Source: Williamsia limnetica (GTDB lineage: Bacteria; Actinomycetota; Actinomycetes; Mycobacteriales; Mycobacteriaceae). Taken from it: a stretch of DNA of 64,000 nucleotides. Positions 18,488 through 48,460 of this stretch are shown one piece after another; positions within the stretch are counted from its first letter, which is position 1; each line of letters begins with the position of its first letter. Position numbers and translations under genes: made by a program. The notes under the pieces were generated by a model. It searched no databases. It saw nothing but the letters and a program-made list of their open reading frames with translations, and had not been told where the DNA came from. The stretch is taken from positions 124,001-188,000 of the forward strand of contig NZ_QJSP01000003.1 in the NCBI RefSeq assembly GCF_003217475.1. Direction: 5' to 3'.

Positions 18488-18535
18488 CGTGGGTACCTCA
18501 CCTTGTCTTGTGGAGGGCATCCCGCGCCAGGCGCT

Positions 18536-28939: not shown

Positions 28940-28984
28940 GTCATCAGCCCGGAATGCCTTTCCCCCATGATTGAGGTATTCCGC

Positions 28985-30469
28985 GTGTCCACGCCCCTAA
29001 CTGACAGCTCGCCTGCCGAGCCTCCCCCGTCCGCACCGGACTCAGGCCCGGAATTGCAGCGCACCCTCGGTGGTTTTCAGGTCTTCGCGATCTCCTTCGC
29101 GTTCATCTCCGTCGCAGTGGGCATCTTCGGGACCTACGGCGAGATGTTGGCGACAGCGGGGCCCGTCGGCATCTGGCTGTGGCTGATCGCTGTCGTCGGC
29201 CAAACTCTGGTAGCCCTGGTGGTCGCGCAGTTCGCGGCCCGGATCGCGCTCAGTGGCTCGTCCTATCAGTGGGCATCGAGGCTGGCCAACCCGAAAATCG
29301 GCTGGCTCTTCGGGTGGCTGACGTTCTGGTTTCTGGCCATTGCGGTGGTCGCTCTGGACAGCGCACTGGCCAGCCAGGCCTTCATGCCGCTGGTCGGAAT
29401 GGACGAGAACGAGGACACCGCTCGCATCATCACCGTCGTCATCCTGATCCTGCAGGCGATTCTGGTCATCGCGTCCACTCGGCTGCTGGGCCTGATCACC
29501 TCCGGTGCTGTTGGTGTCGAACTCGCCATCGTCGCAGTCTTGGTGGTGGCGCTGATCGGAGTCGTCGTGTTCACCAGCAGCGGGGATGTCAGCAACCTCA
29601 CCTCTCGCGGAGTCACCGAAGGTAACAGCTCCTACTACGCGATCGGCGGCGGTCTGACTGCCGGAATGCTCATGGGTCTGACCACCTTGGTGGGGTTCGA
29701 CTCCGCGGCCAACCTCGCCGAGGAGGCCAAGGACCCGTTCCGAAGCGTGCCACGTGCCATCGTCGCCTCCGTGGTCGCTGCGGGCGTGGCCGGATTCCTG
29801 TTCCTGATCGCACTGACGGTTGCGATCGAAGACATCGATGCCATCAGTAAGAGCGGATCCCCGGTGGCCGCCATCATCCGCGACCAGCTCGGCCCGGTGA
29901 TGGAGCGGATACTCCTGGCCGCCATCGTTTTTGCGATCTTCGGTGCCGGCATGGTCGTCATGGCCGCCTGCTCACGTCAGGCGTTCGCGATGGCCCGCGA
30001 CCAACGCTTCCCGGCACACAAGCTGATGCGCAAGGTCAACCCGCGCACCCAGACACCGATATTCGCGACCCTGCTCATCCTCGTGGTCGGCGTCGTCTTG
30101 CTACTGGTCCTGCCCGGCGATGCGTTGCTCAAGCTGATCACGGCCTCTACGCTGCTGCCCGCCATCATCTACGGCGCGACCGTCATTCTCTACCTGGTCG
30201 TCCGAAAACGGCTGGAGCACAAGGAGGGTGGGTTCAGCCTCGGACGCTTCGAGATGCCGATCGCCGTTGCGGCCCTCATCTGGGTTGTCGTCGCACTGTT
30301 CGTTCTTGTCACCCCTGGCGATTCCACGGCGTCCAACGTCATCGTCGCCGGTCTCATCCTGTTGGGCGGTGTCTACTTCGCCAAGATGATGATCTTCAAT
30401 CGAGAGGTGCTCGAGACCGAGCCGTCCGGTGGCGACGCCGTCGACGCTGTTGTCGAGTCGACCGAATGA
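28985..30469 (+). CDS. APC-superfamily amino acid permease (copy 2)
   Basis: A 494-aa permease nearly superimposable on the copy at 17003-18487, sharing SGSSYQWASRLANPK, FMPLVGMDENEDTARIITV and FDSAANLAEEAKDPFRSVP. The GTG at 28985 follows TGAGGTA, the same signal as in copy 1; the ATG at 28967 would add six residues. It is coupled to the downstream flavoprotein gene by an ATGA overlap, which copy 1 lacks, so the two copies may serve different pathways. They lie about 10.5 kb apart in opposite orientation. Confidence 0.92.
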   Translation: MSTPLTDSSPAEPPPSAPDSGPELQRTLGGFQVFAISFAFISVAVGIFGTYGEMLATAGPVGIWLWLIAVVGQTLVALVVAQFAARIALSGSSYQWASRLANPKIGWLFGWLTFWFLAIAVVALDSALASQAFMPLVGMDENEDTARIITVVILILQAILVIASTRLLGLITSGAVGVELAIVAVLVVALIGVVVFTSSGDVSNLTSRGVTEGNSSYYAIGGGLTAGMLMGLTTLVGFDSAANLAEEAKDPFRSVPRAIVASVVAAGVAGFLFLIALTVAIEDIDAISKSGSPVAAIIRDQLGPVMERILLAAIVFAIFGAGMVVMAACSRQAFAMARDQRFPAHKLMRKVNPRTQTPIFATLLILVVGVVLLLVLPGDALLKLITASTLLPAIIYGATVILYLVVRKRLEHKEGGFSLGRFEMPIAVAALIWVVVALFVLVTPGDSTASNVIVAGLILLGGVYFAKMMIFNREVLETEPSGGDAVDAVVESTE

Positions 30470-37153: not shown

Positions 37154-37209
37154 CGTCCCTCAATGCCGTAGTTGAATCGCGGCTGTAAGGCCGCTCACCG
37201 ACCGACCAT

Positions 37210-37359
37210 AGCCCAGAAAAAAATAAAGTCCAGCCCGCACGGAAAAACACCAAGGAACCCTCAACGCAGCGCAGTGATCCCGACATCGTCTCTTCTGCAG
37301 TTGATTTCGGAAACATCTGGGAAAACTGGAGCGGACTGGCTTTTATTTTTTTTCGGGCT
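37210..37359. promoter_or_regulatory. Divergent promoter region with inverted A/T-tract elements
   Basis: A 26-27-bp block at 37210-37235 (AGCCC, A7 tract, TAAA, CCAGCC) recurs in inverted orientation at 37333-37359 (GGACTGG, CTTTTATTTTTTTT, CGGGCT). The runs of A/T stand out in this GC-rich genome. Each copy sits 40-60 bp upstream of one of the divergent genes, a promoter position. Confidence 0.6.
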
Positions 37360-37396
37360 AGAGTCCGAGGTAACTGATAAACAAAGGAGTGTGGCC

Positions 37397-37882
37397 GTGA
37401 AAGCGGTTGTCATGGAGTGCAGAATTCGAGTGTGCGCGACGCCGGCGCGGTTTCTATCGTTTCGACGGCGCGCGGAGCAACTCGCCGACGCGGCGTTCTC
37501 GGGACGAACGCGCCGTTCGAGCGCGGCCGTCGATTCGGGGTCCCGGCTGCTGCTGCGCCAGTGGCACATGCACAACGACGTCACACGTCTCGGCGAGCCG
37601 CAGTGCCGGGAGGTGTGCTTGGCCTTCGCCGACAACCCGGCCCGGTTGACCCCAGCGAAACTCGAGGCCCTTTCCCGCAACATCCTGGCCACGCTCGAAA
37701 TCGACACTGCGGGGTCGTCAACCGAGACCGTTCCGTGGATTCTGACGCTGACGACGGACGCCGACGCCGCGTACAGACGTCAGATGACTGACCGGCACCC
37801 GACTCTGCACACCAGCGCCGGCAGCGCTTCTGACGGCTTGGTGGCCCCTATGGTGTCAGCCGCACAGGACGTACTGCAATGA
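37397..37882 (+). CDS. Hypothetical protein coupled to a GreA-like gene
   Basis: A 161-aa protein from GTG 37397 with AAAGGAG eight bases before it. Not recognised. It has a basic N-terminal third (RVCATPARFLSFRRRAEQLA), a more regular central part (EVCLAFADNPARLTPAKLEAL) and a Thr/Ala-rich end. No signal peptide or membrane segment. Its stop overlaps the GreA-like start by ATGA, so the two proteins are made together and may act together. Confidence 0.7.
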   Translation: MKAVVMECRIRVCATPARFLSFRRRAEQLADAAFSGRTRRSSAAVDSGSRLLLRQWHMHNDVTRLGEPQCREVCLAFADNPARLTPAKLEALSRNILATLEIDTAGSSTETVPWILTLTTDADAAYRRQMTDRHPTLHTSAGSASDGLVAPMVSAAQDVLQ

Positions 37883-38364
37883 CCATCGTGCCCACGTCAG
37901 GAAAACGCCTCGACACCAGGGACCGTCTAGACCAACAGTTGTCTCAACTGTGTCTGTTGAGAGCCGCGGTCAGCGCCGAGATGATCGACCATCGCTGCCA
38001 GGGAGATCTGGAGAACAACGACGCTTACCACCGAAGCGTGGCAGACCTCGAAGCCCTCGACGGCCAGATAGCTCGCATCCACGCTGCGCTCAAGACCATC
38101 GATGAGCCCGACGTAGGAGACGACACCATCCGACTCGGTTCCGTAGTCACCGTCGAGTTCGATCACGACCAGACCGACCGCACCCGATTTCTGCTCGGTG
38201 CACATGAGCAGCACGAGCTGGTCGATGTCGAGATCTGCTCGCCCGACTCGCCTCTCGGCCAAGCGATACTTGGTTCGGTGGTGGGCGACGAACGATTCTT
38301 TGTGCTGCCAACCGGTCGGATGTGCACGGTCACGGTGGTGGACTGCGTCCACCACCGCTGGTGA
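37879..38364 (+). CDS. GreA/GreB-like transcription factor
   Basis: A 161-aa protein with GreA organisation: an N-terminal helical hairpin (residues ~15-72) whose tip reads CQGDLENNDAYH, and a C-terminal FKBP-like domain with GSVVTVEF and SPLGQAILGSVVGDERFF. It should enter the RNA polymerase secondary channel. In E. coli GreA the tip is GDLKEN with Asp41 and Glu44 catalysing RNA cleavage; here the second acid is Asn with a Glu one position earlier, so cleavage activity may be altered, as in Gfh1-type or Rnk-like factors. Confidence 0.8.
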   Translation: MTIVPTSGKRLDTRDRLDQQLSQLCLLRAAVSAEMIDHRCQGDLENNDAYHRSVADLEALDGQIARIHAALKTIDEPDVGDDTIRLGSVVTVEFDHDQTDRTRFLLGAHEQHELVDVEICSPDSPLGQAILGSVVGDERFFVLPTGRMCTVTVVDCVHHRW

Positions 38365-38472
38365 CCCTCGCCGAGGCCACCAGAAGGCGCGTGTATGCGT
38401 TTTACCGATGAACTCGACGTTGCAATCCAACGCTGGCGAGAAACTGCTGGGAAGAACCGGACAAAAGAGGAA

Positions 38473-38506
38473 AGAGGCCCCACTCGACTGAGTCGAGTGG
38501 AGCCTC
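38473..38506 (+). terminator. Terminator hairpin after the GreA-like gene
   Basis: AGAGGC/GCCTCT outer arms and the perfect inner stem CCACTCGAC-TGA-GTCGAGTGG, followed by a T/C-rich run to 38524. It stands just left of the integrated element. Confidence 0.75.
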
Positions 38507-38524
38507 TGATCTTCTGTTCTTCTT

Positions 38525-38569
38525 GTGGAGCTAAGGGGAATCGAACCCCTGACCTTCTCGATGCGAACG
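38525..38569. repeat. Left attachment repeat (attL) of the integrated element
   Basis: 45 bp identical to 48387-48431. It carries the 3' half of a tRNA-Ala from the anticodon loop to the discriminator base, with no 5' half next to it, so it is the displaced original end of the target tRNA gene or its att counterpart. Confidence 0.92.
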
Positions 38570-38757
38570 GGACCGTAAGCCTCTGACCTGTGCGTTTAAC
38601 TTTGCTTGAACTGTTGATCGATGCCTAGTTCGCGAGGTCAACACGTTTATCACGTTGAATCCGGTCGGCAGGTTGCGAACCTACTGCGGAACCGCTGCGG
38701 AACGCGAGTGGCCAATAACTGGTCGAATCCCGTTCGGGTCGCAGATATTCTCGAACA

Positions 38758-39354
38758 ATGACCGGCACTCCCGCGCACGATGGCGCTGACCGTCTGACCC
38801 ACGTCGACCAAGTCCGCGTTACCTATCATGAGATCCGGTCGCCCTGGTCTGAAGAGGACAGGACGCCGCAGCACAGCCTTCTGTTGATGGTTAGCCCGTC
38901 AGGACCCGTCGATCTCGATGAGCTAAGAAGACTGGCCGAGATGATCCCGGGTGGACCCGACTACATCTTGGACCAGAACGTGCACCACCACAGCTGGGGT
39001 GCCGACGCAACCGTCGTCGAGTTCGTAGTTCAGGCCGCTGCGAGCGGAGTTATCGGCAGCATTGGTTGGGAGGCTTTGAAGTCGTTCGCCAGGGCGGTCA
39101 CCGGCGGGCGAAAGTCGGAACCTCCTCGCCCGCTAGAGGAAAGCGAGGCCCGTGGCTGGGCGGAACAAATGGCCGTGCGGCGGTTCCCGGACCTGGTACT
39201 CGATGACCTCGTCGTGCGACGAGTCGAGCTACGCGAACCGAACGCAACCGTGACGCTCGGCTGCCGAGACGGCTCGACAGTCACTGTTGAGCTTGAAATC
39301 CAAGACGGGCTTATCGCGCTGGGAGCAGTCGCGAGGGACTACCCCTCTCCCTAA
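38758..39354 (+). CDS. Hypothetical protein at the element's left end (possible cargo)
   Basis: A 198-aa acidic protein of no recognised family. ATG 38758. The N-terminal part is polar (HDGADRLTHVDQVRVTYHE); the centre holds a hydrophobic stretch ATVVEFVVQAAASGVIGSIG (~residues 82-101) that could be membrane-associated or a buried helix; the C-terminal part alternates in a beta pattern (VTLGCRDGSTVTVELEI). It is convergent with the HEPN-like gene with 20 bp between them. Position at the end of a satellite is typical for defence or other accessory cargo (inference). Confidence 0.65.
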   Translation: MTGTPAHDGADRLTHVDQVRVTYHEIRSPWSEEDRTPQHSLLLMVSPSGPVDLDELRRLAEMIPGGPDYILDQNVHHHSWGADATVVEFVVQAAASGVIGSIGWEALKSFARAVTGGRKSEPPRPLEESEARGWAEQMAVRRFPDLVLDDLVVRRVELREPNATVTLGCRDGSTVTVELEIQDGLIALGAVARDYPSP

Positions 39355-39374
39355 GCAATCGCGACTGGCGCCGG

Positions 39375-40028
39375 TCAATCGGTCTTCGGCACCGCGTCGA
39401 GTGTTAGCAAGAGATGATTGATGACGTATCGCGCCGAGCTCGACTGGTCATCTGCGGGCCGCATCTCCGATGGAATGACTATCTTTGATTCGTTGATGTT
39501 GTCGATGATCTGCTTCGCGAGCGGTGAAATCCTCGTTTCGTACATCGCGTTCCTCAGTACCTCCACATGCTGGCGGAAAGCTGCCACAAACTCGCTATCG
39601 TCCTCCGGTCCTAGATCGATCCCAAGGACCAGATGTAGCGACGATGGAGTCGCAGACCCGTTGCGGAAGGCGATGACAGTCTCTGCTGACTCAAACTCGG
39701 CGCGTTTCCGGTGCGCGACGTGGCCGTGCCTCCAGTCCATGACGCGCTTGTGCATCGCGCTACCGCTGTCCCCCGTGATTTCCTGAACAAAGTTCTTGAA
39801 CTGGATGTCACGCCTGTCTTTGCTCTGGTCTGCCCTTGCATACGCGACGACTGCAGATTCCCAGAGCGCTCGCCGCTGAAACAGTGATGATGGCCTTCTC
39901 GGTAGCTGCTGCCGTTCAAATAGAGCCATCCCAGCGTGCTGGAGATCGGCCCACGCCGATCCCCAACGCTCAAGTTCCTTCACTTTTTCGCCGCTCAAGG
40001 TCGACCAATTCTGGGGATCGTCAGACAT
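39375..40028 (-). CDS. Hypothetical helical protein with HEPN-like RX5H motif
   Basis: A 217-aa, mostly helical protein. The segment VMDWRHGHVAHRKRAEF (~residues 95-111) contains R-x5-H in the form commonly seen as RNKxxAH in HEPN ribonucleases such as AbiU2-type proteins. If real, these residues would be the RNase active site after dimerisation. No other domain is recognised. Its own promoter would lie in the 382-bp gap to the right. Candidate anti-phage cargo; the HEPN call rests on one motif. Confidence 0.6.
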   Translation of the reverse strand: MSDDPQNWSTLSGEKVKELERWGSAWADLQHAGMALFERQQLPRRPSSLFQRRALWESAVVAYARADQSKDRRDIQFKNFVQEITGDSGSAMHKRVMDWRHGHVAHRKRAEFESAETVIAFRNGSATPSSLHLVLGIDLGPEDDSEFVAAFRQHVEVLRNAMYETRISPLAKQIIDNINESKIVIPSEMRPADDQSSSARYVINHLLLTLDAVPKTD

Positions 40029-40410
40029 GCGCCTGAGCCTATGCGGCGTGTACGAAAAGACGCGGTCGGGCGACGGAATTCATCTGTTCGGACTCTCAAT
40101 TGCCCACTTTTGACCCACTCTAGGCCGCCGGGCGACTCCGCCACCTGCGTAGATGTGCCAGCTAAGCGGGTTTTTCAGCTATCGCTCACTGTCAGCACCA
40201 GAGCGCTGCGCAAACGCGTCCGCGCACGCGAGGGGGTCCCCGCCCCCAGGGGCGTCGCGTGTCGCGTACGAATGTTGTTGCAGGCAAACAGGTTTCGGAC
40301 CTGCGCGTTTGACGGCGAGGCTCGGGTCGGTCTAGGTTTGTGTCAGTCGGCCACCACGTCAGCCGCTCCGAATCACATTCCCTCGCAACACCTTCCCCTG
40401 AGGAGTCCCC
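40029..40410. other. 382-bp non-coding region in the element
   Basis: No gene seen. It lies between divergent units. It has a GC-rich stretch at about 40230-40262 with GGGGTCCCC and interleaved G5/C5 runs able to fold into competing hairpins, flanked by CGCGA and TCGCG. This could be a regulatory or packaging/origin site. Confidence 0.45.
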
Positions 40411-40644
40411 ATGTCTGCACCCGTTTCGCTCGCCAAGTCCCCCGTTTCCACTGAGACCGACCTCGACCGCGTCTACCTTCGCTCGGCGTCGGAAGCATCG
40501 CTCAACCGTGAGGCTCGCAGTACCTACGCGGCCCTAGATCGCGGCACGGCACAGGACGGCGATGCGGAGTACTACCAGGCCTTGCGGTGCGAACTGGCTT
40601 GGCGCGGCATGGCCGCTGCTCACCCCATGTTCGCCAAGATTTAG
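40411..40644 (+). CDS. Small hypothetical protein of the element
   Basis: A 77-aa soluble protein; ATG 40411 is preceded by GAGGAG. Helical, with Tyr and Arg-rich segments (DRVYLRSASEASLNREARS). Unrecognised. First of four plus-strand small genes. Confidence 0.6.
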   Translation: MSAPVSLAKSPVSTETDLDRVYLRSASEASLNREARSTYAALDRGTAQDGDAEYYQALRCELAWRGMAAAHPMFAKI

Positions 40645-40731
40645 CTCGAAAGGCCCTGAGTCCCTTGAGGGGTGCCGATCGTCATAGGTCTCACAGGGCG
40701 CGATCCATCAACCCACCGAAAGCAAGCAAAC

Positions 40732-40899
40732 ATGCGTACACACCTGGTCTCGGCCGTGGTCGAAGACGTTCCCGGCGATAGGCCAATCGTGGTCCTCGAA
40801 CAGGGCGGCGTCGTACTCGTCGACCTCGAACTCGCTGACGCAACCCGACTGCGCTCCGAGCTAGATACGGCCATCGCGGCGATGGCGGTGTCGCGATGA
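40732..40899 (+). CDS. Small hypothetical protein of the element
   Basis: A 55-aa protein from ATG 40732 with a beta-rich first half (PIVVLEQGGVVLVDLEL) and a helical end. The stop overlaps the next start by ATGA, which supports that it is translated. Unrecognised. Confidence 0.6.
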   Translation: MRTHLVSAVVEDVPGDRPIVVLEQGGVVLVDLELADATRLRSELDTAIAAMAVSR

Positions 40900-41237
40900 C
40901 CGGCTACATAGTGTTCGGCGCGATCATGATGGTCGGCCTACTCGGCGGCATCTTGGGCGATGGCACCCCGCGCCCGAACCGCGTCCGCCCTGGTCGGGGT
41001 GTTACAGCGTCGGCGCGTCGCCAGGATTGCGAACTGAAGATGCTCGAAGACCACTACTCGGCGCGCCGCGAGGAGGTGGACGCGGACCTGCGCGAGGCGA
41101 TGCGCCGGTTGAATGAGGCGGCCAACGACCCGGACCCGCGTGACCGGCTCTATGCGCGGATGCGCGACGTCGACTGCGCAATCGAAGCGGTGCGTTACAT
41201 CAAGCAGGGTCAAGCGAACGTCGCGGCGATATGCTGA
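40896..41237 (+). CDS. Small membrane-anchored hypothetical protein
   Basis: A 113-aa protein with one N-terminal membrane helix (IVFGAIMMVGLLGGILG), a basic linker, then a charged helical segment LEDHYSARREEVDADLREAM likely to form a coiled coil. Coupled to both neighbours by overlapping stop/start codons. Unrecognised; the layout would suit a membrane-tethered regulator or superinfection-exclusion protein, but nothing proves this. Confidence 0.65.
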   Translation: MTGYIVFGAIMMVGLLGGILGDGTPRPNRVRPGRGVTASARRQDCELKMLEDHYSARREEVDADLREAMRRLNEAANDPDPRDRLYARMRDVDCAIEAVRYIKQGQANVAAIC

Positions 41238-41479
41238 CTGTGATGAATGAAGCAGAGGAACTCGCACTGGCAGAGGCGTGGCTCGACCAACTTGACCCCG
41301 ACACGGTCGAGGGGCGAGGCACTGAGCACTTCCACCGCATCCGGCAGGCCGTTAGATCCGGCGACCGCGATCGTCTAACCCGAGAGATTTCCCTTGCTCG
41401 CGAGGCGGGCGATTCGTGGGCAATGGTCGGGTGCGCGCTCGGTATCAGCGGGCGAGCGGCACAGTCTCAGTTCGGCTGA
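41231..41479 (+). CDS. Small HTH-type protein
   Basis: An 82-aa protein (starts at 41231 or 41243). Its C-terminal 24 residues, GDSWAMVGCALGISGRAAQ, follow the pattern common to actinobacterial helix-turn-helix ends (SWAEIGxALGVSRQAA). The first 55 residues are acidic and helical. Ends just before a strong terminator. Confidence 0.65.
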   Translation: MLTVMNEAEELALAEAWLDQLDPDTVEGRGTEHFHRIRQAVRSGDRDRLTREISLAREAGDSWAMVGCALGISGRAAQSQFG

Positions 41480-41498
41480 GCAACACCTAGTGCAAGAC

Positions 41499-41531
41499 AG
41501 AGCACCCCGGCCACTGTGGTCGGGGTGCTCT
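41499..41531. terminator. Strong bidirectional terminator hairpin
   Basis: Perfect 11-bp stem AGAGCACCCCG / CGGGGTGCTCT around an 11-nt loop, with TTGTGT after it. It separates the plus-strand small genes from the convergent minus-strand capsid operon. Confidence 0.85.
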
Positions 41532-41545
41532 TGTGTGCTGTGGGG

Positions 41546-41833
41546 TTACGGCCAAAACGGGCGCCTGTTTGCTCGGCCGATGCGGTGGCGTAGTTCGTCG
41601 TGGTCGAGACCGTGATCGTCGGCGTACATCTTGGCGTAGGCCCACCACGCCCGGCGCGCTCGGAGCATGATGTCGAATGCTTCGGCGGGGTCGGTGGGTT
41701 CATGGCCGCGATGTGCGGCGTAGTCGTCGGGTGCGAACACTGCAACGTTCGGGCCGTGGCACAACGGTTCTGGTAGGCGTGAACCGACGTCGACCTCGAC
41801 CGGCGTCGGCTGCCGCTGGCGAACTCTAGCCAT
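41546..41833 (-). CDS. Small hypothetical protein, last gene of the capsid operon
   Basis: A 95-aa protein; ATG 41833 overlaps the upstream gene's stop. It contains Pro-rich N-terminal sequence and a C-terminal helical part AFDIMLRARRAWWAYAKMY. Unrecognised, but position next to the small-terminase-like gene suggests a virion-morphogenesis or packaging role. Confidence 0.65.
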   Translation of the reverse strand: MARVRQRQPTPVEVDVGSRLPEPLCHGPNVAVFAPDDYAAHRGHEPTDPAEAFDIMLRARRAWWAYAKMYADDHGLDHDELRHRIGRANRRPFWP

Positions 41834-42239
41834 GGCCCACGATCCGCAACATCACGTCGCCTGTCGCGTCACCGGCGGGTGCGTAGGTGCCTCGGCTGCC
41901 TGTGCGTTTCTGAGCCTGCCTACCGGCCGTCCGGGTGCCGTCAGCCGCTTCAACGATTTCGGGCAGTCTCAGCGACCCGACCAACTTTGCAATGAGGCCA
42001 CCGACCTGGCGAAGCTCGACCACGTGCGGGTGGTTCACCAGCTCACCGAAACGGTTCGCGACGGCCAGCGGTTCGCCGTGCATCGCGAGCGTAAGCGCGT
42101 CCTCGCGAGTGATCGCCCGCGCTAGAGACACGATCACAATCTCTTCGCCGTGGCTGAGGACGTAGTCGGCTTCGACGGCCTTGACGTAGTCTCGGGCGCG
42201 CTTGGACCAAGAAGTGCGTTCCTGGCGTGCAATGGTCAT
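41826..42239 (-). CDS. Terminase-small-subunit-like protein
   Basis: A 137-aa protein. The block NHPHVVELRQVGGLIAKLVG (~residues 68-87) followed by SLRLPE matches the pattern HPxxxExRqxxxxLaxLLxxLxLP seen at the C-terminal side of actinophage small terminase/P27-like proteins. The N-terminal part is basic and helical. Located downstream of the capsid gene, where phiRv-type elements also carry packaging-type genes. No large terminase is present, so it may redirect a helper phage's packaging motor. Confidence 0.45.
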   Translation of the reverse strand: MTIARQERTSWSKRARDYVKAVEADYVLSHGEEIVIVSLARAITREDALTLAMHGEPLAVANRFGELVNHPHVVELRQVGGLIAKLVGSLRLPEIVEAADGTRTAGRQAQKRTGSRGTYAPAGDATGDVMLRIVGHG

Positions 42240-42279
42240 ATCATCTCTCTCGCAATACTTTCGGTGCTTGAACCAACTC

Positions 42280-42311
42280 AGCCCTCACCGGGAAAGCGGC
42301 CGGTGAGGGCT
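42280..42311. terminator. Perfect 12-bp hairpin between capsid and terminase-like genes
   Basis: AGCCCTCACCGG (42280-42291), 8-nt loop, CCGGTGAGGGCT (42300-42311). No T-run follows on either strand; it may reduce expression of the downstream genes relative to capsid or protect mRNA ends. Confidence 0.6.
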
Positions 42312-42446
42312 GGTCGGGAAAGGGCACGGGGCACAACACCCGCGCTTCACGAACGGTGACTGATTTCCGTCGTGAAGTTCTGGCCCGGCCGGGCATCGTC
42401 ACTCGGTTCGCCTGAGATTGGTTAGCGATGCTCGGCCGGAAGTGTT

Positions 42447-43295
42447 TTACGGTGCGTCGTAGGTGGCGACGGCGATTGCCTTGGGGTCGACCCACCCGAT
42501 ACCGACGCGCAGGTTTGCCTTGACGGCGACCCGGTCGGAACTGAAGTACACACTGGCGTCGGTGGTCAGGGTGGCTTCCTGGCGGACGGCGAGCACTATG
42601 CGCGAGGCGTCCACGACGTAGAGGGCGTCAGCCTTGACCGCCGGGTCTGCGACGACCGGCAGGCCTTGGATTGTTGCCGCCACGGGCTGGCTGGCGTCGG
42701 GGCCGTAGAGCTGCTGTGCCGACCCGGTCGAGACCTTGGTCTTCGCAGCGGTCGCGGCCAGGGCCGGACTCACCACGACGTGCGTCGCGGTGTTGCCGTT
42801 CGCCTTCAGTGCCGCGATGCCGTCAACGACGATGTCGGCGTCGGTCAGTGCGGTATCGCCCAGGTCGATGGTTCCGGTGATTGACTGGATGCCGTTCGGC
42901 CCTTCGGCGACGGTGTTGCCGAAGGCGGCGAGGTCGAGCTTGTTTGCGAGCTGGCGCACCAGCGAGTTTCCGACCAGGGTCAGCACTCCACCGCCCTCGG
43001 TGTGGGCGTCCGCGATCAACTCGGCGGTCACCGGCACGATCGCGGCGAGCTTCTTGAAGACGAGCGGAACCTCGGTGATGGCAAGATTGTCGATGTTGAT
43101 CTCGCTACCTTCGGCAACCCATCCAGCGTTGGTGCCGTCGGTCACCTTGGGGATGCGCAGAGAGCTGCCCTTGACTGGTACGTATGTCGAAACCTGTCCG
43201 AACGCGGCCTCGGTGATGAGCGGCTCGATAATGAGTGAGCTGACTTCGGCGGATGACACTGCGCCGGTGCCGCCGGTGGTCTTGGAAATGGTCAT
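42447..43295 (-). CDS. HK97-fold major capsid protein
   Basis: A 282-aa protein with the phage capsid family pattern: IIEPLITEAAFGQVSTYVPV near the start, the E-loop to spine region WVAEGSEINIDNLAITEVPL, VPVTAELIADAH in the spine helix and GLPVVADPAVKADALYVVDA in the A domain. No N-terminal scaffold/delta domain precedes it, so a separate scaffold may be used. It would form the head shell of the element's own particle. It is the only clear virion protein in the element. Confidence 0.9.
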   Translation of the reverse strand: MTISKTTGGTGAVSSAEVSSLIIEPLITEAAFGQVSTYVPVKGSSLRIPKVTDGTNAGWVAEGSEINIDNLAITEVPLVFKKLAAIVPVTAELIADAHTEGGGVLTLVGNSLVRQLANKLDLAAFGNTVAEGPNGIQSITGTIDLGDTALTDADIVVDGIAALKANGNTATHVVVSPALAATAAKTKVSTGSAQQLYGPDASQPVAATIQGLPVVADPAVKADALYVVDASRIVLAVRQEATLTTDASVYFSSDRVAVKANLRVGIGWVDPKAIAVATYDAP

Positions 43296-43468
43296 GAGTG
43301 GTTGAATCCTTCGAGATACGAAGTGGATTCACGTTCAGCGTTCGGCCGTTAGTGGTGCCGCGAACCTGCGGCGATTCTCAGCAATCCGGCGAATCGAACG
43401 GACTCAAACCTTAATGCTCATTCCATTATCTGTCGGTGTTTTCTACCAATCCAGGCCATTCGGAGTGC

Positions 43469-43969
43469 TTACTCAGAGATGCCGAAAACCGTCGATGCGA
43501 AGGACGGCGACCGCTTGCCGCCGGGCGTTGCGCCACGTTGAAATTGGCCAGCGTTGGCATAGGTTCCCGGAACCGGCTTCTTCAGCTCTGCCCTGGCCAG
43601 ACCCGGTCGTTGTTCGAGGAGTTCGGCCTGTGCGCGGGCGACAGCTTCAGGGTCGACATGGCCGGTCTCGACGTCGGTCACCTCGGCCAGGTCGAGATTG
43701 CCGTACTCGAACAAATCGGTCGGGTCCGCGAGGTCTGTTGCCAGTCGAGTGATCTCGGCGCGCTGCACGGCGGCGAGCTTGACGGCCAAGGCATCCCGTT
43801 CGCTCTCGGCCACCTGAGCGCGCTTGCGGTATTTACGCGATTCGATGGGGTCGGTGTCGTCGTCCTGGTCGTCGGTCTCGATGCCAGGGGTGCCGGTGTT
43901 CGGGTCGAGCGTCGTCGCGTCGTCTGCGTCGATCTGGGCGGCCGGGTCGGTGGTCGTGGTGTCAGTCAT
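43469..43969 (-). CDS. Probable scaffold-like protein
   Basis: A 166-aa very acidic protein: an Asp/Thr-rich disordered N-terminus, a central coiled-coil-like helix (YRKRAQVAESERDALAVKLA) and a Pro/Gly-rich end. Acidic, coiled proteins directly upstream of the capsid gene are usually scaffolds; the call rests on that and on composition. Overlaps the upstream gene by 8 nt. Confidence 0.6.
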   Translation of the reverse strand: MTDTTTTDPAAQIDADDATTLDPNTGTPGIETDDQDDDTDPIESRKYRKRAQVAESERDALAVKLAAVQRAEITRLATDLADPTDLFEYGNLDLAEVTDVETGHVDPEAVARAQAELLEQRPGLARAELKKPVPGTYANAGQFQRGATPGGKRSPSFASTVFGISE

Positions 43970-44300
43970 GTGTAGCGGTGTCCTCGGTCGTGAGTCGGGT
44001 GTCGATCAAAAGTTGCCGGCCGGCGGCGAACGTGTAGCCGGCGACGGGGCCGTACCAGTGAATCGCTGTCGTTACCGTGCGGTTGTCGGGATGGTCGACG
44101 TCCTCGGCGGGCAGCATTGCGACGTGGCGTAGCAGAGCAACTTCCAAGTCGGTCGCGGTTCGCCTCACCACCTGATTGCTGCGGTCGGCTTCTAGTCGCG
44201 AGTCGTAGCGGTCTTGGTGGATGCCCAGGTGACGGTACGCAATCGGCCCGCGTGGATCACCGGCCGGGAGACGCTCGCCGAGCGTGGAGAAGTCAGTCAT
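43962..44300 (-). CDS. Hypothetical protein of the capsid operon
   Basis: A 112-aa soluble protein, not recognised. It has LEVALLRHVAMLPAEDVDHP and a C-terminal beta-like segment (GPVAGYTFAAGRQLLIDTR). Its ATG overlaps the upstream stop (ATGACTGA), and it overlaps the scaffold-like gene, so all are co-translated. Confidence 0.65.
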   Translation of the reverse strand: MTDFSTLGERLPAGDPRGPIAYRHLGIHQDRYDSRLEADRSNQVVRRTATDLEVALLRHVAMLPAEDVDHPDNRTVTTAIHWYGPVAGYTFAAGRQLLIDTRLTTEDTATHD

Positions 44301-44469
44301 CGGCGGCCACGAGTTCGTTGATCCGCTTGTTTAGGCAGATCAGTTGGCGTTGCTGAGTCTCGTACGCCGCGACGACGCCTGCGACCAGGTCGGTCAGGTT
44401 GTCGACCTGCAATGCAAGGTTCTGGACTGCGACGGCGTGCAGGCGGTCGAACGATGTTGGTTCGGTCAT
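44293..44469 (-). CDS. Small coiled-coil protein (58 aa)
   Basis: ATG 44469, stop 44293. The sequence has heptad-like leucines (LALQVDNLTDLVAGVVAAYE) and is coupled by overlaps to both neighbours (ATGA upstream, 8 nt downstream). Unrecognised. Confidence 0.7.
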   Translation of the reverse strand: MTEPTSFDRLHAVAVQNLALQVDNLTDLVAGVVAAYETQQRQLICLNKRINELVAADD

Positions 44470-44681
44470 TGTGGGCCGCCGCCCGCCTTGACGTCAGCCT
44501 CGGCAAGCAGCGCCAGGGTGGCAATGTGATTGGCCACAAGCTGCTCGACCTGCTTGTGTAGCGAGTGGATCTGCACGCCCTGATCTTGGATCTGTCCGGC
44601 AAGCGCGTCGAGGGTGGCGAGCGCGTGCCGCTGTTCTCGGCGGGTGCCGTTCCGGTCACGGTATCGGTGTGGTGATGTCAT
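44466..44681 (-). CDS. Small coiled-coil protein (71 aa)
   Basis: ATG 44681. A basic Arg-rich N-terminus then a helix LAGQIQDQGVQIHSLHKQVE with regular hydrophobic spacing. The 58- and 71-aa proteins have similar layouts and may pair. Unrecognised. Confidence 0.65.
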   Translation of the reverse strand: MTSPHRYRDRNGTRREQRHALATLDALAGQIQDQGVQIHSLHKQVEQLVANHIATLALLAEADVKAGGGPQ

Positions 44682-44731
44682 TGTCGGTGTCTTGGATCCT
44701 GTTCGTGGAAGGTGGCGGGGCTGAGCGATTC

Positions 44732-45811
44732 TCAGAAGCCTGGTCCGTCGTCGTAGTCGGAAAGCTCCAAGGCATGCCCGGTGCCGACACCGGCGTCGGC
44801 GAACAGTCGCGTGATGCCCGCCGAGCCTTCAGATCGGCGGGTTGCAGTTGTTTCGGGGACTACAGCGTGGGTGTGGTCAGGCCGTGGCGCATTGGCGACT
44901 ACGTGGTGTTCTCTGGTGCGGTACTCGGTGGCGAGGTACCAGTCATCCGGAAGGTTGAGGCATTCGGCGATGCTGTCGACGTGCTCGCTTGCTTCGAATA
45001 CGTGGTCGACGCGGTCACCAGTGGTCATGCCCGCGATGGCATGCAGGATGTTGGTGAACGTCGCATCCCAACTCTTGCGAGCGATGCGTTCCTTGTGTGC
45101 CCAGCGTTTGAACGGGCCTGCGAGGGCACCGGCGTGGAGTCCGTATCCGGTAGCGATATTGACGTGGATTCCGTTTACGTGCCACCCGGCGTGGATCGTG
45201 GTTCCTACCTCGGCCACGTCTCCATCGACCATCGGAGTGTGTTCGTGCGTGGGGTGCGCGGTAGCGGACCCAGTCTCTAGATCTTTAACCTGATCTTCTT
45301 TTACCTGATCTAGAACCTGATAGGGGTCCAGCTGTGGACCCCGGTTCGTTCTGATTTGAACCCCGGTCAGTGCTGAATTGGACCCCGGTTCGGTTGTGCG
45401 GAGGTTCTCCGGAGTCTCTCGTACATGAGGGCTCACTGAGGACTCAGTGAGTGATTCGGCGGTCAGCTCACTGCAAGCGCAGCGCTGTTTGTGGGATCTC
45501 TTCCACGCGTCTTGGTTTCGGAGGAACGACGCGTAGCAAGGGGTCACCGGTACATCGGCGAGCTGGTAGGTGTTCGCATCGCCTCCCGACCCGCCGCCAC
45601 CGGCTCGCGTGAGTTCAATGCAGCCCTTAGCCTCAAGAGACTTGAGGTGCCGCTTGACTGAGGAGCGGCTATGGCCGGTCGCCGCTCGCAGGTGGTCCAC
45701 TCCTGGACGTGCGTTGCCGCCTCCCCCGCTACTGAAAGTGGCGAGCACGGCGAGAACGCGAAACTCACCGTCGGTAATGTCCGCGCCTCGGGTCGCTGTA
45801 AACCACGTCAA
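44732..45811 (-). CDS. Winged-helix replication-type protein
   Basis: At least 359 aa from the TTG at 45811. Residues ~10-75 form a winged helix of the replication-initiator/phage helix-turn-helix type (DGEFRVLAVLATFS; RAATGHSRSSVKRHLKSLEA), followed by a Gly-rich wing, a charged linker and a C-terminal ~150-residue domain with WAHKERIARKSWDATFTNIL. The frame stays open upstream to 45877 with coding-like sequence and an AAAAGGA site, but without ATG, GTG or TTG, so the true start may be non-canonical. Likely role: replication or regulation of the excised element. Confidence 0.65.
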   Translation of the reverse strand: MTWFTATRGADITDGEFRVLAVLATFSSGGGGNARPGVDHLRAATGHSRSSVKRHLKSLEAKGCIELTRAGGGGSGGDANTYQLADVPVTPCYASFLRNQDAWKRSHKQRCACSELTAESLTESSVSPHVRETPENLRTTEPGSNSALTGVQIRTNRGPQLDPYQVLDQVKEDQVKDLETGSATAHPTHEHTPMVDGDVAEVGTTIHAGWHVNGIHVNIATGYGLHAGALAGPFKRWAHKERIARKSWDATFTNILHAIAGMTTGDRVDHVFEASEHVDSIAECLNLPDDWYLATEYRTREHHVVANAPRPDHTHAVVPETTATRRSEGSAGITRLFADAGVGTGHALELSDYDDGPGF

Positions 45812-45888
45812 TTTCTGGAACGGATTCTGTCCGGTGGAGCGGCCGCGCTCAATGTCATCTGATATGATTGTCGTATCCTTTTAGAAAG

Positions 45889-45920
45889 GAAATGCGTCGA
45901 CTAGCCGGTCGGCGCATTTC
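45889..45920. promoter_or_regulatory. Stem-loop just upstream of the replication-type gene
   Basis: GAAATGCG (45889-45896) pairs with CGCATTTC (45913-45920), with further partial pairing inside. On the minus strand it is followed by CTTTCT and then by the AAAAGGA ribosome site, so it could be an attenuator or terminator of the upstream gene. Confidence 0.55.
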
Positions 45921-45941
45921 GCGTTGATGGGAGCGATTCGC

Positions 45942-46247
45942 TTAGGTCATGTATGTTCCCGGCGCCCACTCACTAACCGGTATTTCGCGCAGATTGTCGG
46001 ATAGATAGTGGAACTCCTCGGCCAACCAAGGATAATTGTGGTTCGCGTCATCGCGGGTGGTGTCGAGTTCCGCAGCTCGCAGCATTACCCCAAATGCGTC
46101 GATACCGGAAGTCTGGCAGACTTCACCACCATCGGCGGCGCGGCGCGAATGTTTACGCACCGTGAAGTCTGAGTTTATGCGAACGTCTTTGCCGCAGGTA
46201 TTGCAATGCAATTTACCCATGGCTGAATTGACCTCGGAGATTGACAC
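45942..46247 (-). CDS. Small zinc-finger-like protein
   Basis: A 101-aa protein (GTG 46247; ATG 46220 with GAGG upstream is equally possible). KLHCNTCGKDVRI supplies CXXC, and VRKHSRR...EVCQ supplies His and Cys about 20 residues on, suggesting one zinc ribbon. The rest is acidic and Tyr/Trp-containing. Unrecognised; phage zinc-ribbon proteins of this size are often regulators. Confidence 0.65.
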   Translation of the reverse strand: MSISEVNSAMGKLHCNTCGKDVRINSDFTVRKHSRRAADGGEVCQTSGIDAFGVMLRAAELDTTRDDANHNYPWLAEEFHYLSDNLREIPVSEWAPGTYMT

Positions 46248-46267
46248 GACGAAAAGCCCTTTCAGAT

Positions 46268-46450
46268 TTAATGTCCGGCGGATTTGCGCTCACGCTGGGC
46301 GAGCCACCACCGGACGGCCTCGGAGCTGTTCAGCAGCACCAGCGATCCGGTCAGCGTGGCGTCGAGGTCACCGGCGCGGATGGCTGTCTGAACCTCGGCG
46401 GCCTCGACGCGCAACGACCGGCAGAAGTCAGTTAGCAGGATCGGTCTCAT
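46268..46450 (-). CDS. Small hypothetical protein (60 aa)
   Basis: ATG 46450 overlaps the upstream HTH gene stop (ATGA). Sequence includes CRSLRVEAAEVQTAIRAGDL and SSEAVRWWLAQRERK, resembling a degenerate MerR/excisionase fold. Real by coupling; function unknown. Confidence 0.65.
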   Translation of the reverse strand: MRPILLTDFCRSLRVEAAEVQTAIRAGDLDATLTGSLVLLNSSEAVRWWLAQRERKSAGH

Positions 46451-46635
46451 ATTCGCCGCGCCTCGACGAACGTGGCGAGATCGGTTCGTGAGATCCTGCG
46501 GTGGCCGCCTGGGCCGGTCGGCCGCATGACGGTGATCTGTGGATTTTGAGTAAGGATCCGGTTTAGCACCGGCCGCGAGATTCCTAGGTAGTCCTGCGCG
46601 TCGGCTGGCCTCAGCCATTCAGTGAGTTGCAACAT
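46447..46635 (-). CDS. MerR/excisionase-type HTH protein (62 aa)
   Basis: The fold is clear: LRPADAQDYLGISRPVLNRI (helix-turn-helix), a short wing with GPGGHRRISRTDLATFV. This is the single-domain form of excisionases and AlpA-like regulators. A candidate recombination directionality factor or activator. Confidence 0.8.
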   Translation of the reverse strand: MLQLTEWLRPADAQDYLGISRPVLNRILTQNPQITVMRPTGPGGHRRISRTDLATFVEARRI

Positions 46636-46702
46636 GAGTCCTTCGAGTGAATTGGTCTAACCCAATTCTTCTCGAACAATGACAGAATGCAAGGGCTCTC
46701 GG

Positions 46703-46906
46703 TTACACGCGAATTCCGCCGCGAGCGGTGGCTACCTCTTGCGCAGCAATCCATTCCTCGATTGCCGACCGGCGATAGACAATGTTCCGACCCAACCGAA
46801 AGCACTTCGGACCCTCATTCTTGCTACGCCAAAACCGCAATGTCCCCTGCGGTATTCCATACTCAATAGAGACCTGCGGAGTGGGAAGAATTTCGTCTGC
46901 GGGCAT
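46703..46906 (-). CDS. AlpA/excisionase-type HTH protein (67 aa)
   Basis: From ATG 46906 (the frame opens at 46942). TPQVSIEYGIPQGTLRFWRS is the HTH, then CFRLGRNIVYRRSAIEEWI, the wing typical of DNA-binding excisionase-family proteins. Being the minus-strand gene next to the integrase and divergent from it, it is the better candidate for the excisionase. Confidence 0.82.
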   Translation of the reverse strand: MPADEILPTPQVSIEYGIPQGTLRFWRSKNEGPKCFRLGRNIVYRRSAIEEWIAAQEVATARGGIRV

Positions 46907-47099
46907 GTCTAATAGACCCTTTCTATGGGGGTGTTTTTCCAATCTGATTGCGCTCTCAATACTACGATCGGCACCTACACCGTTGGCTGTTCGCGGACAG
47001 GAAACGAACGAACACGCTAGTGGCGTGCATCACAGACTCGGTGCGGCAGATTGTGGAGGATCTTCGCCCGGCCGGGGATCAGTGTGCAAAAATTTTCTG

Positions 47100-48335
47100 A
47101 TGAGCACTGAAGCGATCGGGCAGAAACGCAACCAGCGCGCCGCGCAAGTAGTCGACCGTTGGTTCACAAAGCGCCGAGATAGCAATGGAAAACGAATCCC
47201 ATCGGCCTACAACGGCAAGGGGAAGCGCTGGCACGTCCGGTACGTCGACCCTGACGGCCATGAGCAGTTCGGTGGCAGCTTCGCGACGAAGCCCGACGCA
47301 GAGGCGAAGGTTGCCGAGATCAACACAGCCATGACGACTGGCAACTATGTCACTCCACAAGCGGGCAAGGTCAGCGTCGAGACGGTCTACACCGGTTGGG
47401 CGAAGGCTCAGGGCCACATCTCGGCCAAGACTGAAGGAACCCGTAAGAGCGTCTGGATCTGCCACGTTCGCGACCAATGGGGACAGCGCAACGTAGTCGA
47501 CCTCAAGACATCGGAAATCCGCCTATGGGTCGCTGGCTTGGCCGCCGATGAGGCAATCGGAACCACCACCATTGAGAATGCATTCGGGCTGCTCCGGCAA
47601 GTCCTCGGCGCCGCCGTCGAAGACCGACGACTCCCCCGTAATCCCTGCGATGGCGTGAAGCTGCCCAAGCGCGAGCACGCCGACCGTGGCTACCTGTCGC
47701 ACGTGCAAGTGGCCGCTCTGACAGAGGCCGTCGAGCGCAATCCCGAGGTGGTTCGATTCCTGGCGTATACCGGGCTGCGATGGGGAGAGATGGCCGCGCT
47801 ACGAGTCCAGGACTTCGACATGTTGCGACGCCGGGTCAACATCTCCCGAAGCGTGACGGAAGCGAAGGGCCTCACGTGGTCGACGCCGAAGACGCACGAA
47901 CGCCGGTCGGTGCCGTTCCCGAAATCTCTGAGCGTCGAACTGTCAGCTCTGATGGTCGGGAAGTCTCGTGACGACCTCGTGTTCACAGACTCGCGAGGAA
48001 GCGTCCTTCGCGTGAGCAATTACCGGTCTCGCGTGTTCGCGACGGCCGTGAAGATGTGCCAGACCCGCGATGAGACCTTCCCGACGATCACACCGCACGA
48101 TCTGCGGCATACAGCGGCCAGCTTGGCGGTGTCGGCCGGGGCGAACGTGAAGGCAGTCCAAAGAATGCTCGGCCACGCGAAGGCGAGCATGACCCTCGAC
48201 ACCTATGCAGACCTGTTCGACGATGACCTTGAGGCCGTGGCAGACGCCCTCGACATTGCCATCGGAAACGTTGCCGACGCCGGTAGTAAACGGAACCAAA
48301 GTGTTTCTACTGCGGAACCTCTGCGGAACGCTTAG
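47100..48335 (+). CDS. int: Tyrosine-family site-specific integrase
   Basis: A 411-aa recombinase. An N-terminal arm-type DNA-binding region (GKRWHVRYVDPDGHEQFGGSF), a core-binding SAM-like domain and the catalytic domain with Arg in YTGLRWGEMAAL, HDLRH with His and Arg, the second His in MLGHAKASM and Tyr in LDTYADLF. The ATG at 47100 follows a GC-poor stretch, without a strong ribosome site. It ends 51 bp before the right attachment repeat, the usual place for an integrase acting at a tRNA. Confidence 0.95.
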   Translation: MSTEAIGQKRNQRAAQVVDRWFTKRRDSNGKRIPSAYNGKGKRWHVRYVDPDGHEQFGGSFATKPDAEAKVAEINTAMTTGNYVTPQAGKVSVETVYTGWAKAQGHISAKTEGTRKSVWICHVRDQWGQRNVVDLKTSEIRLWVAGLAADEAIGTTTIENAFGLLRQVLGAAVEDRRLPRNPCDGVKLPKREHADRGYLSHVQVAALTEAVERNPEVVRFLAYTGLRWGEMAALRVQDFDMLRRRVNISRSVTEAKGLTWSTPKTHERRSVPFPKSLSVELSALMVGKSRDDLVFTDSRGSVLRVSNYRSRVFATAVKMCQTRDETFPTITPHDLRHTAASLAVSAGANVKAVQRMLGHAKASMTLDTYADLFDDDLEAVADALDIAIGNVADAGSKRNQSVSTAEPLRNA

Positions 48336-48386
48336 AGATTGCTAACGGCTCGGCCTCGAATCTGAGGCTGTGACCTGGCGCTTTAA

Positions 48387-48431
48387 GTGGAGCTAAGGGG
48401 AATCGAACCCCTGACCTTCTCGATGCGAACG
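48387..48431. repeat. Right attachment repeat (attR) within tRNA-Ala
   Basis: 45 bp identical to 38525-38569. Here it is continuous with the tRNA 5' half, so integration rebuilt a complete tRNA. Confidence 0.92.
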
Positions 48432-48460
48432 AGACGCGCTACCAACTGCGCTATAGCCCC
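48388..48460 (-). tRNA. tRNA-Ala (anticodon CGC)
   Basis: 73 nt with acceptor GGGGCTA/TAGCTCC and discriminator A, D-arm GCGC...GCGC, anticodon stem TCTCG/CGAGA with loop TTCGCAT (anticodon CGC, reading GCG), and T-arm AGGGG-TTCGATT-CCCCT. CCA is not encoded. It is the integration target of the element. Confidence 0.95.

What the first reader, a model, noticed from the sequence alone, without database searches (positions are those of the whole stretch)
38525..48431. Compact capsid-encoding satellite integrated in tRNA-Ala
Seen: 45-bp direct repeats, tRNA-Ala target, tyrosine integrase, two excisionase-type HTH proteins, a replication-type winged-helix protein, HK97-fold capsid, scaffold-like and small-terminase-like genes within 9.86 kb. 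Not seen: portal, large terminase, protease, tail, lysis. Known: M. tuberculosis phiRv1/phiRv2 (about 10 kb) and capsid-forming PICIs have comparable content. Inference: it makes its own small head and borrows packaging motor and tails from a helper actinophage. A satellite of this minimal composition in this genus may be undescribed.
Basis: partly seen in the sequence, partly recalled or inferred. Interest (0 to 1): 0.82.

Follow-up and report, generated by a model that had tools for sequence, protein, structure and literature searches.

The report
Ten-kilobase satellite with own capsid
A 9.9 kb phage-parasite element sits in a tRNA gene of a Williamsia bacterium; it carries its own capsid, scaffold and small terminase but no portal, packaging motor or tail, so it probably borrows those from a helper phage.

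Summary
Confirmed. A 9,862-bp element (38525-48435) lies between two copies of a 49-nt repeat (48/49) that overlaps the 3' end of tRNA-Ala(CGC) in a Williamsia genome. It encodes a tyrosine integrase, excisionase, replication initiator, HK97-type capsid, scaffold and TerS; no portal, TerL or tail gene was found. Eight of eight other Williamsia genomes lack it at this tRNA. Of 59 capsid-bearing loci fetched from the family, 29 share the plan (tyrosine integrase, no TerL or portal); 22 of 29 have tRNA-overlapping repeats 7.4-10.5 kb apart. In a capsid tree, 16 of 17 TerL/portal-bearing loci form one clade apart from the rest, which argues against random prophage decay. Twelve deposited 10.9-11.1 kb Mycolicibacterium aichiense 'phages' carry related capsids; the two read in full also lack portal and TerL. 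Best reading: a satellite that builds its own shell, steers the helper's terminase with its own TerS, and borrows portal, motor and tail (inferred). The kind is known (candidate PICIs, phiRv1/phiRv2); this is a new member, and the portal-less lineage is the interesting part.

The parts
38525..38573 (.). attL: displaced copy of the tRNA-Ala 3' end (49 nt, 48/49 to attR)
38681..38705 (+). putative integrase arm-type sites, left arm: two CTGCGGAAC 11 bp apart; 24 of 25 nt shared with the right arm
   Evidence: (D5); both arms of the G106 element carry two tandem CTGCGGACAAA, also 11 bp apart; role inferred
38758..39354 (+). 198-aa cargo protein, function unknown; relatives in 4 of 300 other genomes
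39375..40028 (-). 217-aa cargo protein, function unknown; relatives in 9 of 300 other genomes
40411..41479 (+). four small ORFs (77, 75, 113, 82 aa), unknown; the 82-aa one has a weak HTH hit (phrog_686, 0.0035)
41546..41833 (-). 95-aa protein, beside TerS in 5 elements (window included); no significant profile or fold match
41826..42239 (-). TerS, small terminase subunit, 137 aa
   Evidence: phrog_1496, 0.03; 1.1e-9 to a profile of 11 TerS proteins of the serine-integrase group; relatives hit phrog_1496 at 9.5e-17 and 2.2e-18
42447..43295 (-). major capsid protein, HK97 family, 282 aa, matching TIGR01554 from position 105
43469..43969 (-). scaffolding protein, 166 aa
43962..44300 (-). 112-aa protein (G112), close upstream of the scaffold gene in 14 loci (window included); no profile or fold match
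44466..44681 (-). 71-aa ORF, unknown
44732..45811 (-). winged-helix replication initiator, 359 aa
45942..46247 (-). 101-aa ORF, unknown
46447..46635 (-). HTH_17 protein, excisionase or regulator type
46703..46942 (-). excisionase (phrog_66, 6.6e-7; family profile without the window 4.8e-20)
47100..48335 (+). tyrosine integrase; likely start at the internal ATG 47100, 411 aa
48307..48331 (+). putative integrase arm-type sites, right arm, overlapping the 3' end of the integrase gene
   Evidence: (D5); role inferred
48387..48460 (-). tRNA-Ala(CGC), intact; its 3' part (48387-48435) is attR
   Evidence: 74/74 identical in 8 of 8 other Williamsia genomes

Best explanation
An integrated phage satellite. 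Shown by sequence: integrase and excisionase genes, an attP-like layout (core plus paired repeats on both sides), an initiator gene, and genes for a capsid shell, scaffold and TerS, with no TerL, portal or tail genes. Inferred: on infection by a helper actinophage the element excises and replicates from its own initiator; scaffold and capsid protein form a small shell around a portal supplied by the helper; the satellite TerS loads satellite DNA onto the helper's TerL; helper connectors and tails complete an infectious particle, which integrates into tRNA-Ala of the next cell. The roughly 10 kb length shared by relatives fits a small-shell packing limit.
For: Element anatomy. Element absent at this tRNA in 8 of 8 other Williamsia. 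29 of 59 fetched capsid loci share the plan; 22 of 29 have tRNA-overlapping repeats 7.4-10.5 kb apart. In those 22, 34 gene-caller ORFs of 250 aa or more other than integrase and capsid gave no terminase or portal family in Pfam (14 families, all listed); the 25 of 35 PHROGs shown are replication, DNA-binding, regulatory or unnamed. In the capsid tree 16 of 17 TerL/portal-bearing loci form one clade (100/100). The 10.9-11.1 kb isolates WillG and Alyssa1 share capsid, scaffold, TerS and initiator and lack portal and TerL by annotation and by local profiles. The genome has no PF04860 or PF05133 portal and no PF03354 TerL, so a helper would come from outside.
Against: No induction, particle or helper data. 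The nearest capsid relative is only 37-39% identical, so no close copy shows recent movement. 7 of 29 same-plan loci gave no repeat overlapping a predicted tRNA, and only 7 of 29 gave a TerS by the local profile, so TerS redirection may not be general. 46 overlapping alternative-frame ORFs of 250 aa or more in the 22 elements were not scanned. How the M. aichiense isolates were grown is unknown; no paper was found. Portal and TerL families beyond those modelled could be missed, though the longest unassigned gene of the window element has 217 aa, short for a portal.
Confidence: 0.8

Rival explanations
1. A degraded prophage: a larger temperate phage that lost portal, TerL, lysis and tail genes and kept the integration end and part of the head operon.
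For: No close relatives; a fragment like the end of another integrase lies just left of attL, so the site has a history; weak capsid and TerS hits to ordinary phages; at least one relative locus (L095) has its portal in two pieces.
Against: The element genes are open and the same order recurs in other genera, mostly at 30-45% protein identity, between att repeats. The capsid tree separates TerL/portal-bearing loci from the others in one step apart from L095; random decay should scatter them. The scaffold found no full-length phage record.
Confidence: 0.1
2. A domesticated interference element: capsid and scaffold act as a decoy that poisons assembly of invading phages, without transfer of the element.
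For: No portal of its own; unknown cargo genes lie beside the att site. The decoy role itself is conjecture.
Against: Integrase, excisionase, initiator, TerS and paired att repeats are all kept, which a decoy does not need; related elements of the same size were deposited as phage isolates. Cargo proteins have no convincing PADLOC match.
Confidence: 0.07
3. A capsid-forming PICI in the strict sense that has lost its packaging genes.
For: Similar size (TerL/portal-bearing relatives 9.9-11.3 kb in 11 of 13, against 7.4-10.5 kb in 22 of 29) and homologous capsid and scaffold.
Against: TerL and portal, part of the cf-PICI content, were tested and not met; the capsids of TerL/portal-bearing loci form a different clade.
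Confidence: 0.03

Closest known systems
Mycolicibacterium phages WillG, Alyssa1 and ten others (OR387110-OR387121), 10.9-11.1 kb isolates
   Same: Related capsid (12 of 12 records hit by the L035 capsid) and scaffold (11 of 12 hit by the window scaffold at E <= 0.1); WillG and Alyssa1, the two read in full, also share TerS and initiator by profile and have no portal or TerL.
   Different: Serine integrase, head-tail adaptor, stopper and a 651-aa tape measure protein; the window element has none of these and uses a tyrosine integrase at a tRNA.
Mycobacterium candidate PICIs, including phiRv1 and phiRv2 (PMC10654092)
   Same: Integrase plus major capsid protein, some with terminase and scaffold genes; the tyrosine-integrase examples sit at tRNA genes (section 9 read).
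   Different: Another genus; that paper's data sets and the phiRv1/phiRv2 sequences were not compared here.
Capsid-forming PICIs (cf-PICIs)
   Same: Own capsid; 17 of 59 fetched loci carry TerL and/or portal with homologous capsids, and 11 of 13 with an integrase are bounded by tRNA repeats 9.9-11.3 kb apart.
   Different: cf-PICIs also encode portal, protease, connectors and both terminase subunits (described in PMC10690885, passages seen); this element lacks portal, TerL and protease, and its capsid is in another clade.
SaPI-type PICIs
   Same: Own TerS, inferred to redirect the helper terminase (SaPI practice as described in PMC10690885, passages).
   Different: SaPIs reshape the helper's capsid; this element has its own capsid and scaffold genes.

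Membership tests
[quoted passage not shown]
   definition seen in passages
Mycobacterium-type candidate PICI (definition of PMC10654092) | tyrosine-integrase examples sit at tRNA genes with attL and attR | tested here: met
   element absent there in 8 of 8 other Williamsia
Capsid-forming PICI | own portal and TerL | tested here: not met
Capsid-forming PICI | own head maturation protease | tested here: not met
   no protease hit; capsid matches TIGR01554 from position 105 only
SaPI-type PICI | own TerS | tested here: met
SaPI-type PICI | capsid taken from the helper and remodelled | tested here: inconclusive
   an own capsid gene is present, which speaks against it; use of helper capsid cannot be settled by sequence
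Intact prophage | portal, TerL and tail genes | tested here: not met
Degraded prophage | full-length relatives with the same head module | tested here: not met
   none found for the scaffold or the capsid at 1e-5 in 50,697 phage records; weak capsid hits to ordinary phages exist
Phage satellite (functional sense) | induction and packaging by a helper phage | not testable with these tools
   needs infection experiments

The most novel reading that the evidence does not exclude
Capsid-carrying satellites without portal and TerL are a separate, stable class rather than reduced cf-PICIs: their shell and scaffold nucleate on a foreign, helper-supplied portal, and TerS is the main packaging part they keep. 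This would be a third strategy between SaPI-type capsid remodelling and cf-PICI tail theft, spread through Mycobacteriaceae and already present among deposited small phages.
Probability: 0.5. Interest if true: 0.65.

Novelty: new member of a known kind. Interest (0 to 1): 0.42.

Why it matters
It extends capsid-carrying satellites to Williamsia and, more usefully, gives gene-content and capsid-tree evidence that those without portal and TerL are a lineage of their own in the family. That makes a concrete question testable: can a satellite shell assemble around another phage's portal? The small M. aichiense isolates offer a ready laboratory system, and phiRv1/phiRv2-like elements may follow the same logic (not compared here).

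Tried and rejected
Window capsid against phages: no hit at 1e-5 in 50,697 records; at E <= 5, 193 records, all under 60% identity (Staphylococcus 75, Mycobacterium 36, Mycolicibacterium 12, others), best E in the rows shown 1e-4. The L035 capsid at E <= 0.01 finds 48 records: the 12 small isolates and 36 others, among them full-length phages (best of those shown 2e-6), so the capsid family as such is not confined to satellites. Pattern scan of genome contigs with the capsid found no relative. Plasmids: 2 of 72,556 records. Fold search: models of G112 (pLDDT 81) and the 95-aa protein (pLDDT 85) have no PDB match at E <= 0.001, G112 none in BFVD; their roles stay open. Cargo ORFs: no family named by Pfam, NCBIfam or PADLOC for the 198- and 217-aa proteins, and only weak unnamed PHROGs for the latter; for the 113-aa ORF one PADLOC hit (ZorA, 0.0048) judged chance. 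Resident helper: no PF04860, PF05133 or PF03354 hit in the genome (other TerL families not tested); the phrog_104 search rang in no control genome and proves nothing. The F07 profile was polluted by capsid sequences and not used. Rows dropped or moved before counts: L037 (contig end) is in no group; L073 was printed as group A because of a distant tyrosine integrase but counted as serine-integrase group; L093, L095, L096 and L097 had no integrase for the att test. Papers: full-text searches; the ten rows shown of 83 hold no 'Williamsia'. PMC10023795 and PMC11389934: passages only.
Full report
OBSERVATION. The element is real and its borders are right. The repeat at 38525-38573 / 48387-48435 is 49 nt with one mismatch; a 33-nt core pattern with up to three mismatches occurs nowhere else in the 64 kb and in none of 100 shuffles. 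The right copy is the 3' end of an intact tRNA-Ala(CGC) on the minus strand. Inside each end lies a 25-nt repeat (24 of 25), at 38681-38705 and 48307-48331, made of two CTGCGGAAC copies 11 bp apart; this 9-mer occurs six times in the window, four of them here. In another Williamsia genome (G106) an integrase 62% identical stands at the same tRNA, and next to both of its core copies lie two tandem CTGCGGACAAA, also 11 bp apart. I read these as integrase arm-type sites (inference).

HOST AND SITE. The window lies in a 6.35 Mb genome. A neighbouring chromosomal protein matches Williamsia at 88-95%, and contig lengths of three genus-mates equal those of Williamsia sp. 1138, W. soli C17 and W. muralis BULT 1.1. 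All eight other Williamsia genomes held have the tRNA (74/74) and the right flank. None has this initiator, and the only other Williamsia capsid match (G131, 24% identity) lies elsewhere, beside TerL and portal, so the element is absent from this site in 8 of 8. The site is used by others: G106 has the related integrase and a second core copy on another contig, G131 has two tyrosine integrase ORFs within 2.4 kb of the core but a single core copy in 20 kb, and G059 has a broken integrase match nearby; in the other five only one core copy and no integrase profile hit were found in 10-20 kb.

GENES. From the integrase inward: tyrosine integrase, two HTH_17 proteins (one an excisionase by PHROG), a 101-aa ORF, an initiator, a 71-aa ORF, a 112-aa protein (G112), scaffold, capsid, TerS and a 95-aa protein, then six ORFs of unknown function up to attL. 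The capsid matches TIGR01554 from position 105 of 385, so it seems to lack the N-terminal region that a protease removes in HK97 (that role is recalled knowledge); a separate scaffold gene stands upstream. The TerS call rests on a family: alone it scores 0.03 against phrog_1496, but a profile of 11 TerS proteins from serine-integrase relatives finds it at 1.1e-9 and no other element protein, and family members hit phrog_1496 at 9.5e-17 (L069) and 2.2e-18 (WillG). Its phage hits at E <= 1 are nine records, each annotated terminase small subunit, at E 0.09-0.5. With the window left out, family profiles still find the capsid (2.9e-79), scaffold (2.5e-33), TerS (1.2e-27), G112 (1.5e-21), the 95-aa protein (1.7e-19), initiator (2.3e-21), integrase (2e-121) and excisionase (4.8e-20). 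Portal, TerL, adaptor and HNH profiles find nothing among the 17 element proteins at a limit of E 10.

RELATIVES. The capsid has relatives in 102 of 401 Mycobacteriaceae genomes at E <= 0.001, the own genome included. I fetched stretches of up to 20 kb for 59 capsid loci, mostly the best-scoring hits plus the other Williamsia one; most weaker hits were not fetched. By local profiles: 17 have TerL and/or portal (identities from phrog_104 and phrog_9), 12 have a serine integrase, 11 of these with TerS; 29 have a tyrosine integrase and neither TerL nor portal, the plan of the window; one is cut short (L037). TerS was detected in 7 of the 29 and in none of the 17. The groups are defined by these profiles, so their content is not independent evidence. 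Borders are: 22 of the 29 have a direct repeat of 18-74 nt that overlaps a predicted tRNA, 7,355-10,493 bp apart (median 9,458); 11 of 13 TerL/portal-bearing loci with an integrase likewise, 9,864-11,320 bp. tRNAs used by the 22 are Val, Arg, Ala, Leu, Gly, Thr, Gln, Lys, Met and Ser.

IS PORTAL OR TERL HIDDEN? In the 22 att-bounded elements I took the 34 ORFs of at least 250 aa that my simple gene caller kept, other than integrase and capsid; 46 overlapping alternative-frame ORFs were not scanned. Pfam gave 14 families at 1e-4, all listed, none a terminase or portal; PHROGs gave 35 at 1e-8, of which the 25 shown are primase, polymerase, helicase, initiator, regulator, other DNA-binding or unnamed; ten were not seen.

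DECAY OR DESIGN? A maximum-likelihood capsid tree of 64 rows (59 loci, the window, WillG, Alyssa1, a Tsukamurella plasmid element and one IMG/VR contig) puts 16 of the 17 TerL/portal-bearing rows in one clade at 100/100, one change on the tree; the exception, L095, has its portal match in two pieces and sits with the serine-integrase group. The window joins L033, L032 and L035 (97/86). If portal-less elements were decayed cf-PICIs or prophages they should be scattered among portal-bearing ones. The tree is unrooted and holds no ordinary phage capsids, so which state came first is open.

PHYSICAL PRECEDENT. Twelve deposited isolates from Mycolicibacterium aichiense, 10.9-11.1 kb, carry relatives of the L035 capsid. 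WillG and Alyssa1, the two read in full, encode capsid, TerS, adaptor, stopper, serine integrase, an HTH protein and a tape measure; local profiles add scaffold and initiator and find no portal or TerL. The window scaffold finds 11 phage records at E <= 0.1, all of this set. I found no paper on them, so how they were grown is unknown, and that they are virion-borne rests on their deposit as soil phage isolates.

MECHANISM. Shown: genes and att sites. Inferred from established satellite biology: helper infection, excision, own replication, own shell, TerS-guided use of the helper TerL, borrowed portal and tail. The genome has no PF04860, PF05133 or PF03354 match, so a helper would come from outside.

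KNOWN OR NEW. PMC10654092 (section 9 read; methods passage) defines candidate Mycobacterium PICIs as regions with integration machinery and a capsid gene, some with terminase and scaffold, and includes phiRv1 and phiRv2. PMC10690885 (passages) lists portal, protease, connectors and terminases as cf-PICI content. By these definitions the window element is a candidate PICI of the Mycobacterium type and not a cf-PICI. In the rows shown by my searches no paper describes one in Williamsia or singles out a portal-less class, but most subscription papers are not held.

Noticed in passing
window 38413-38524: The DNA just left of attL is 76% identical over 109 nt to the integrase end and att arm of the element in Williamsia G106 (82% over 164 nt with the core), like a leftover of an earlier element at the same tRNA.
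   Followed up: partly
window 37172-38364: Left neighbours outside the element: a 236-aa protein 39% identical to one near the G106 core copy, and a GreA/GreB-like protein (PF01272, 1.4e-13).
   Followed up: partly
L218 2621-4882 (Williamsia G131): Two tyrosine integrase ORFs beside the same tRNA-Ala, with a single core copy in 20 kb and no satellite head genes.
   Followed up: partly
L102 8075-10030 (WillG) and L103 8355-10310 (Alyssa1): The M. aichiense small phages encode a 651-aa tape measure protein about 50% identical to those of 52-54 kb mycobacteriophages, where the match spans more DNA in two pieces; perhaps they set a shorter tail.
   Followed up: partly
L124 2967-3812 and 12055-12900: One 13.5 kb IMG/VR contig carries two related capsid genes, perhaps two satellites side by side.
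   Followed up: no
L039 10227-11939: A satellite-like locus has a Sipho_Gp37 gene (PF14594, 5.9e-40) directly after the capsid gene, inside a 10.0 kb repeat interval.
   Followed up: no
L086 8731 and 19286 (G263): A TerL/portal-bearing satellite in another genus uses a tRNA-Ala site with a nearly identical core.
   Followed up: no
window 17003-18520 and 28967-30469: Two similar ~500-aa genes in the window; both match the same protein of G119 (W. soli), at 77% and 95%.
   Followed up: no
L104, Tsukamurella tyrosinosolvens plasmid NZ_LR134452.1: A satellite-like element with integrase, G112, scaffold and capsid lies on a 386 kb plasmid; its capsid is identical to that of L050 in the tree's columns.
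   Followed up: partly
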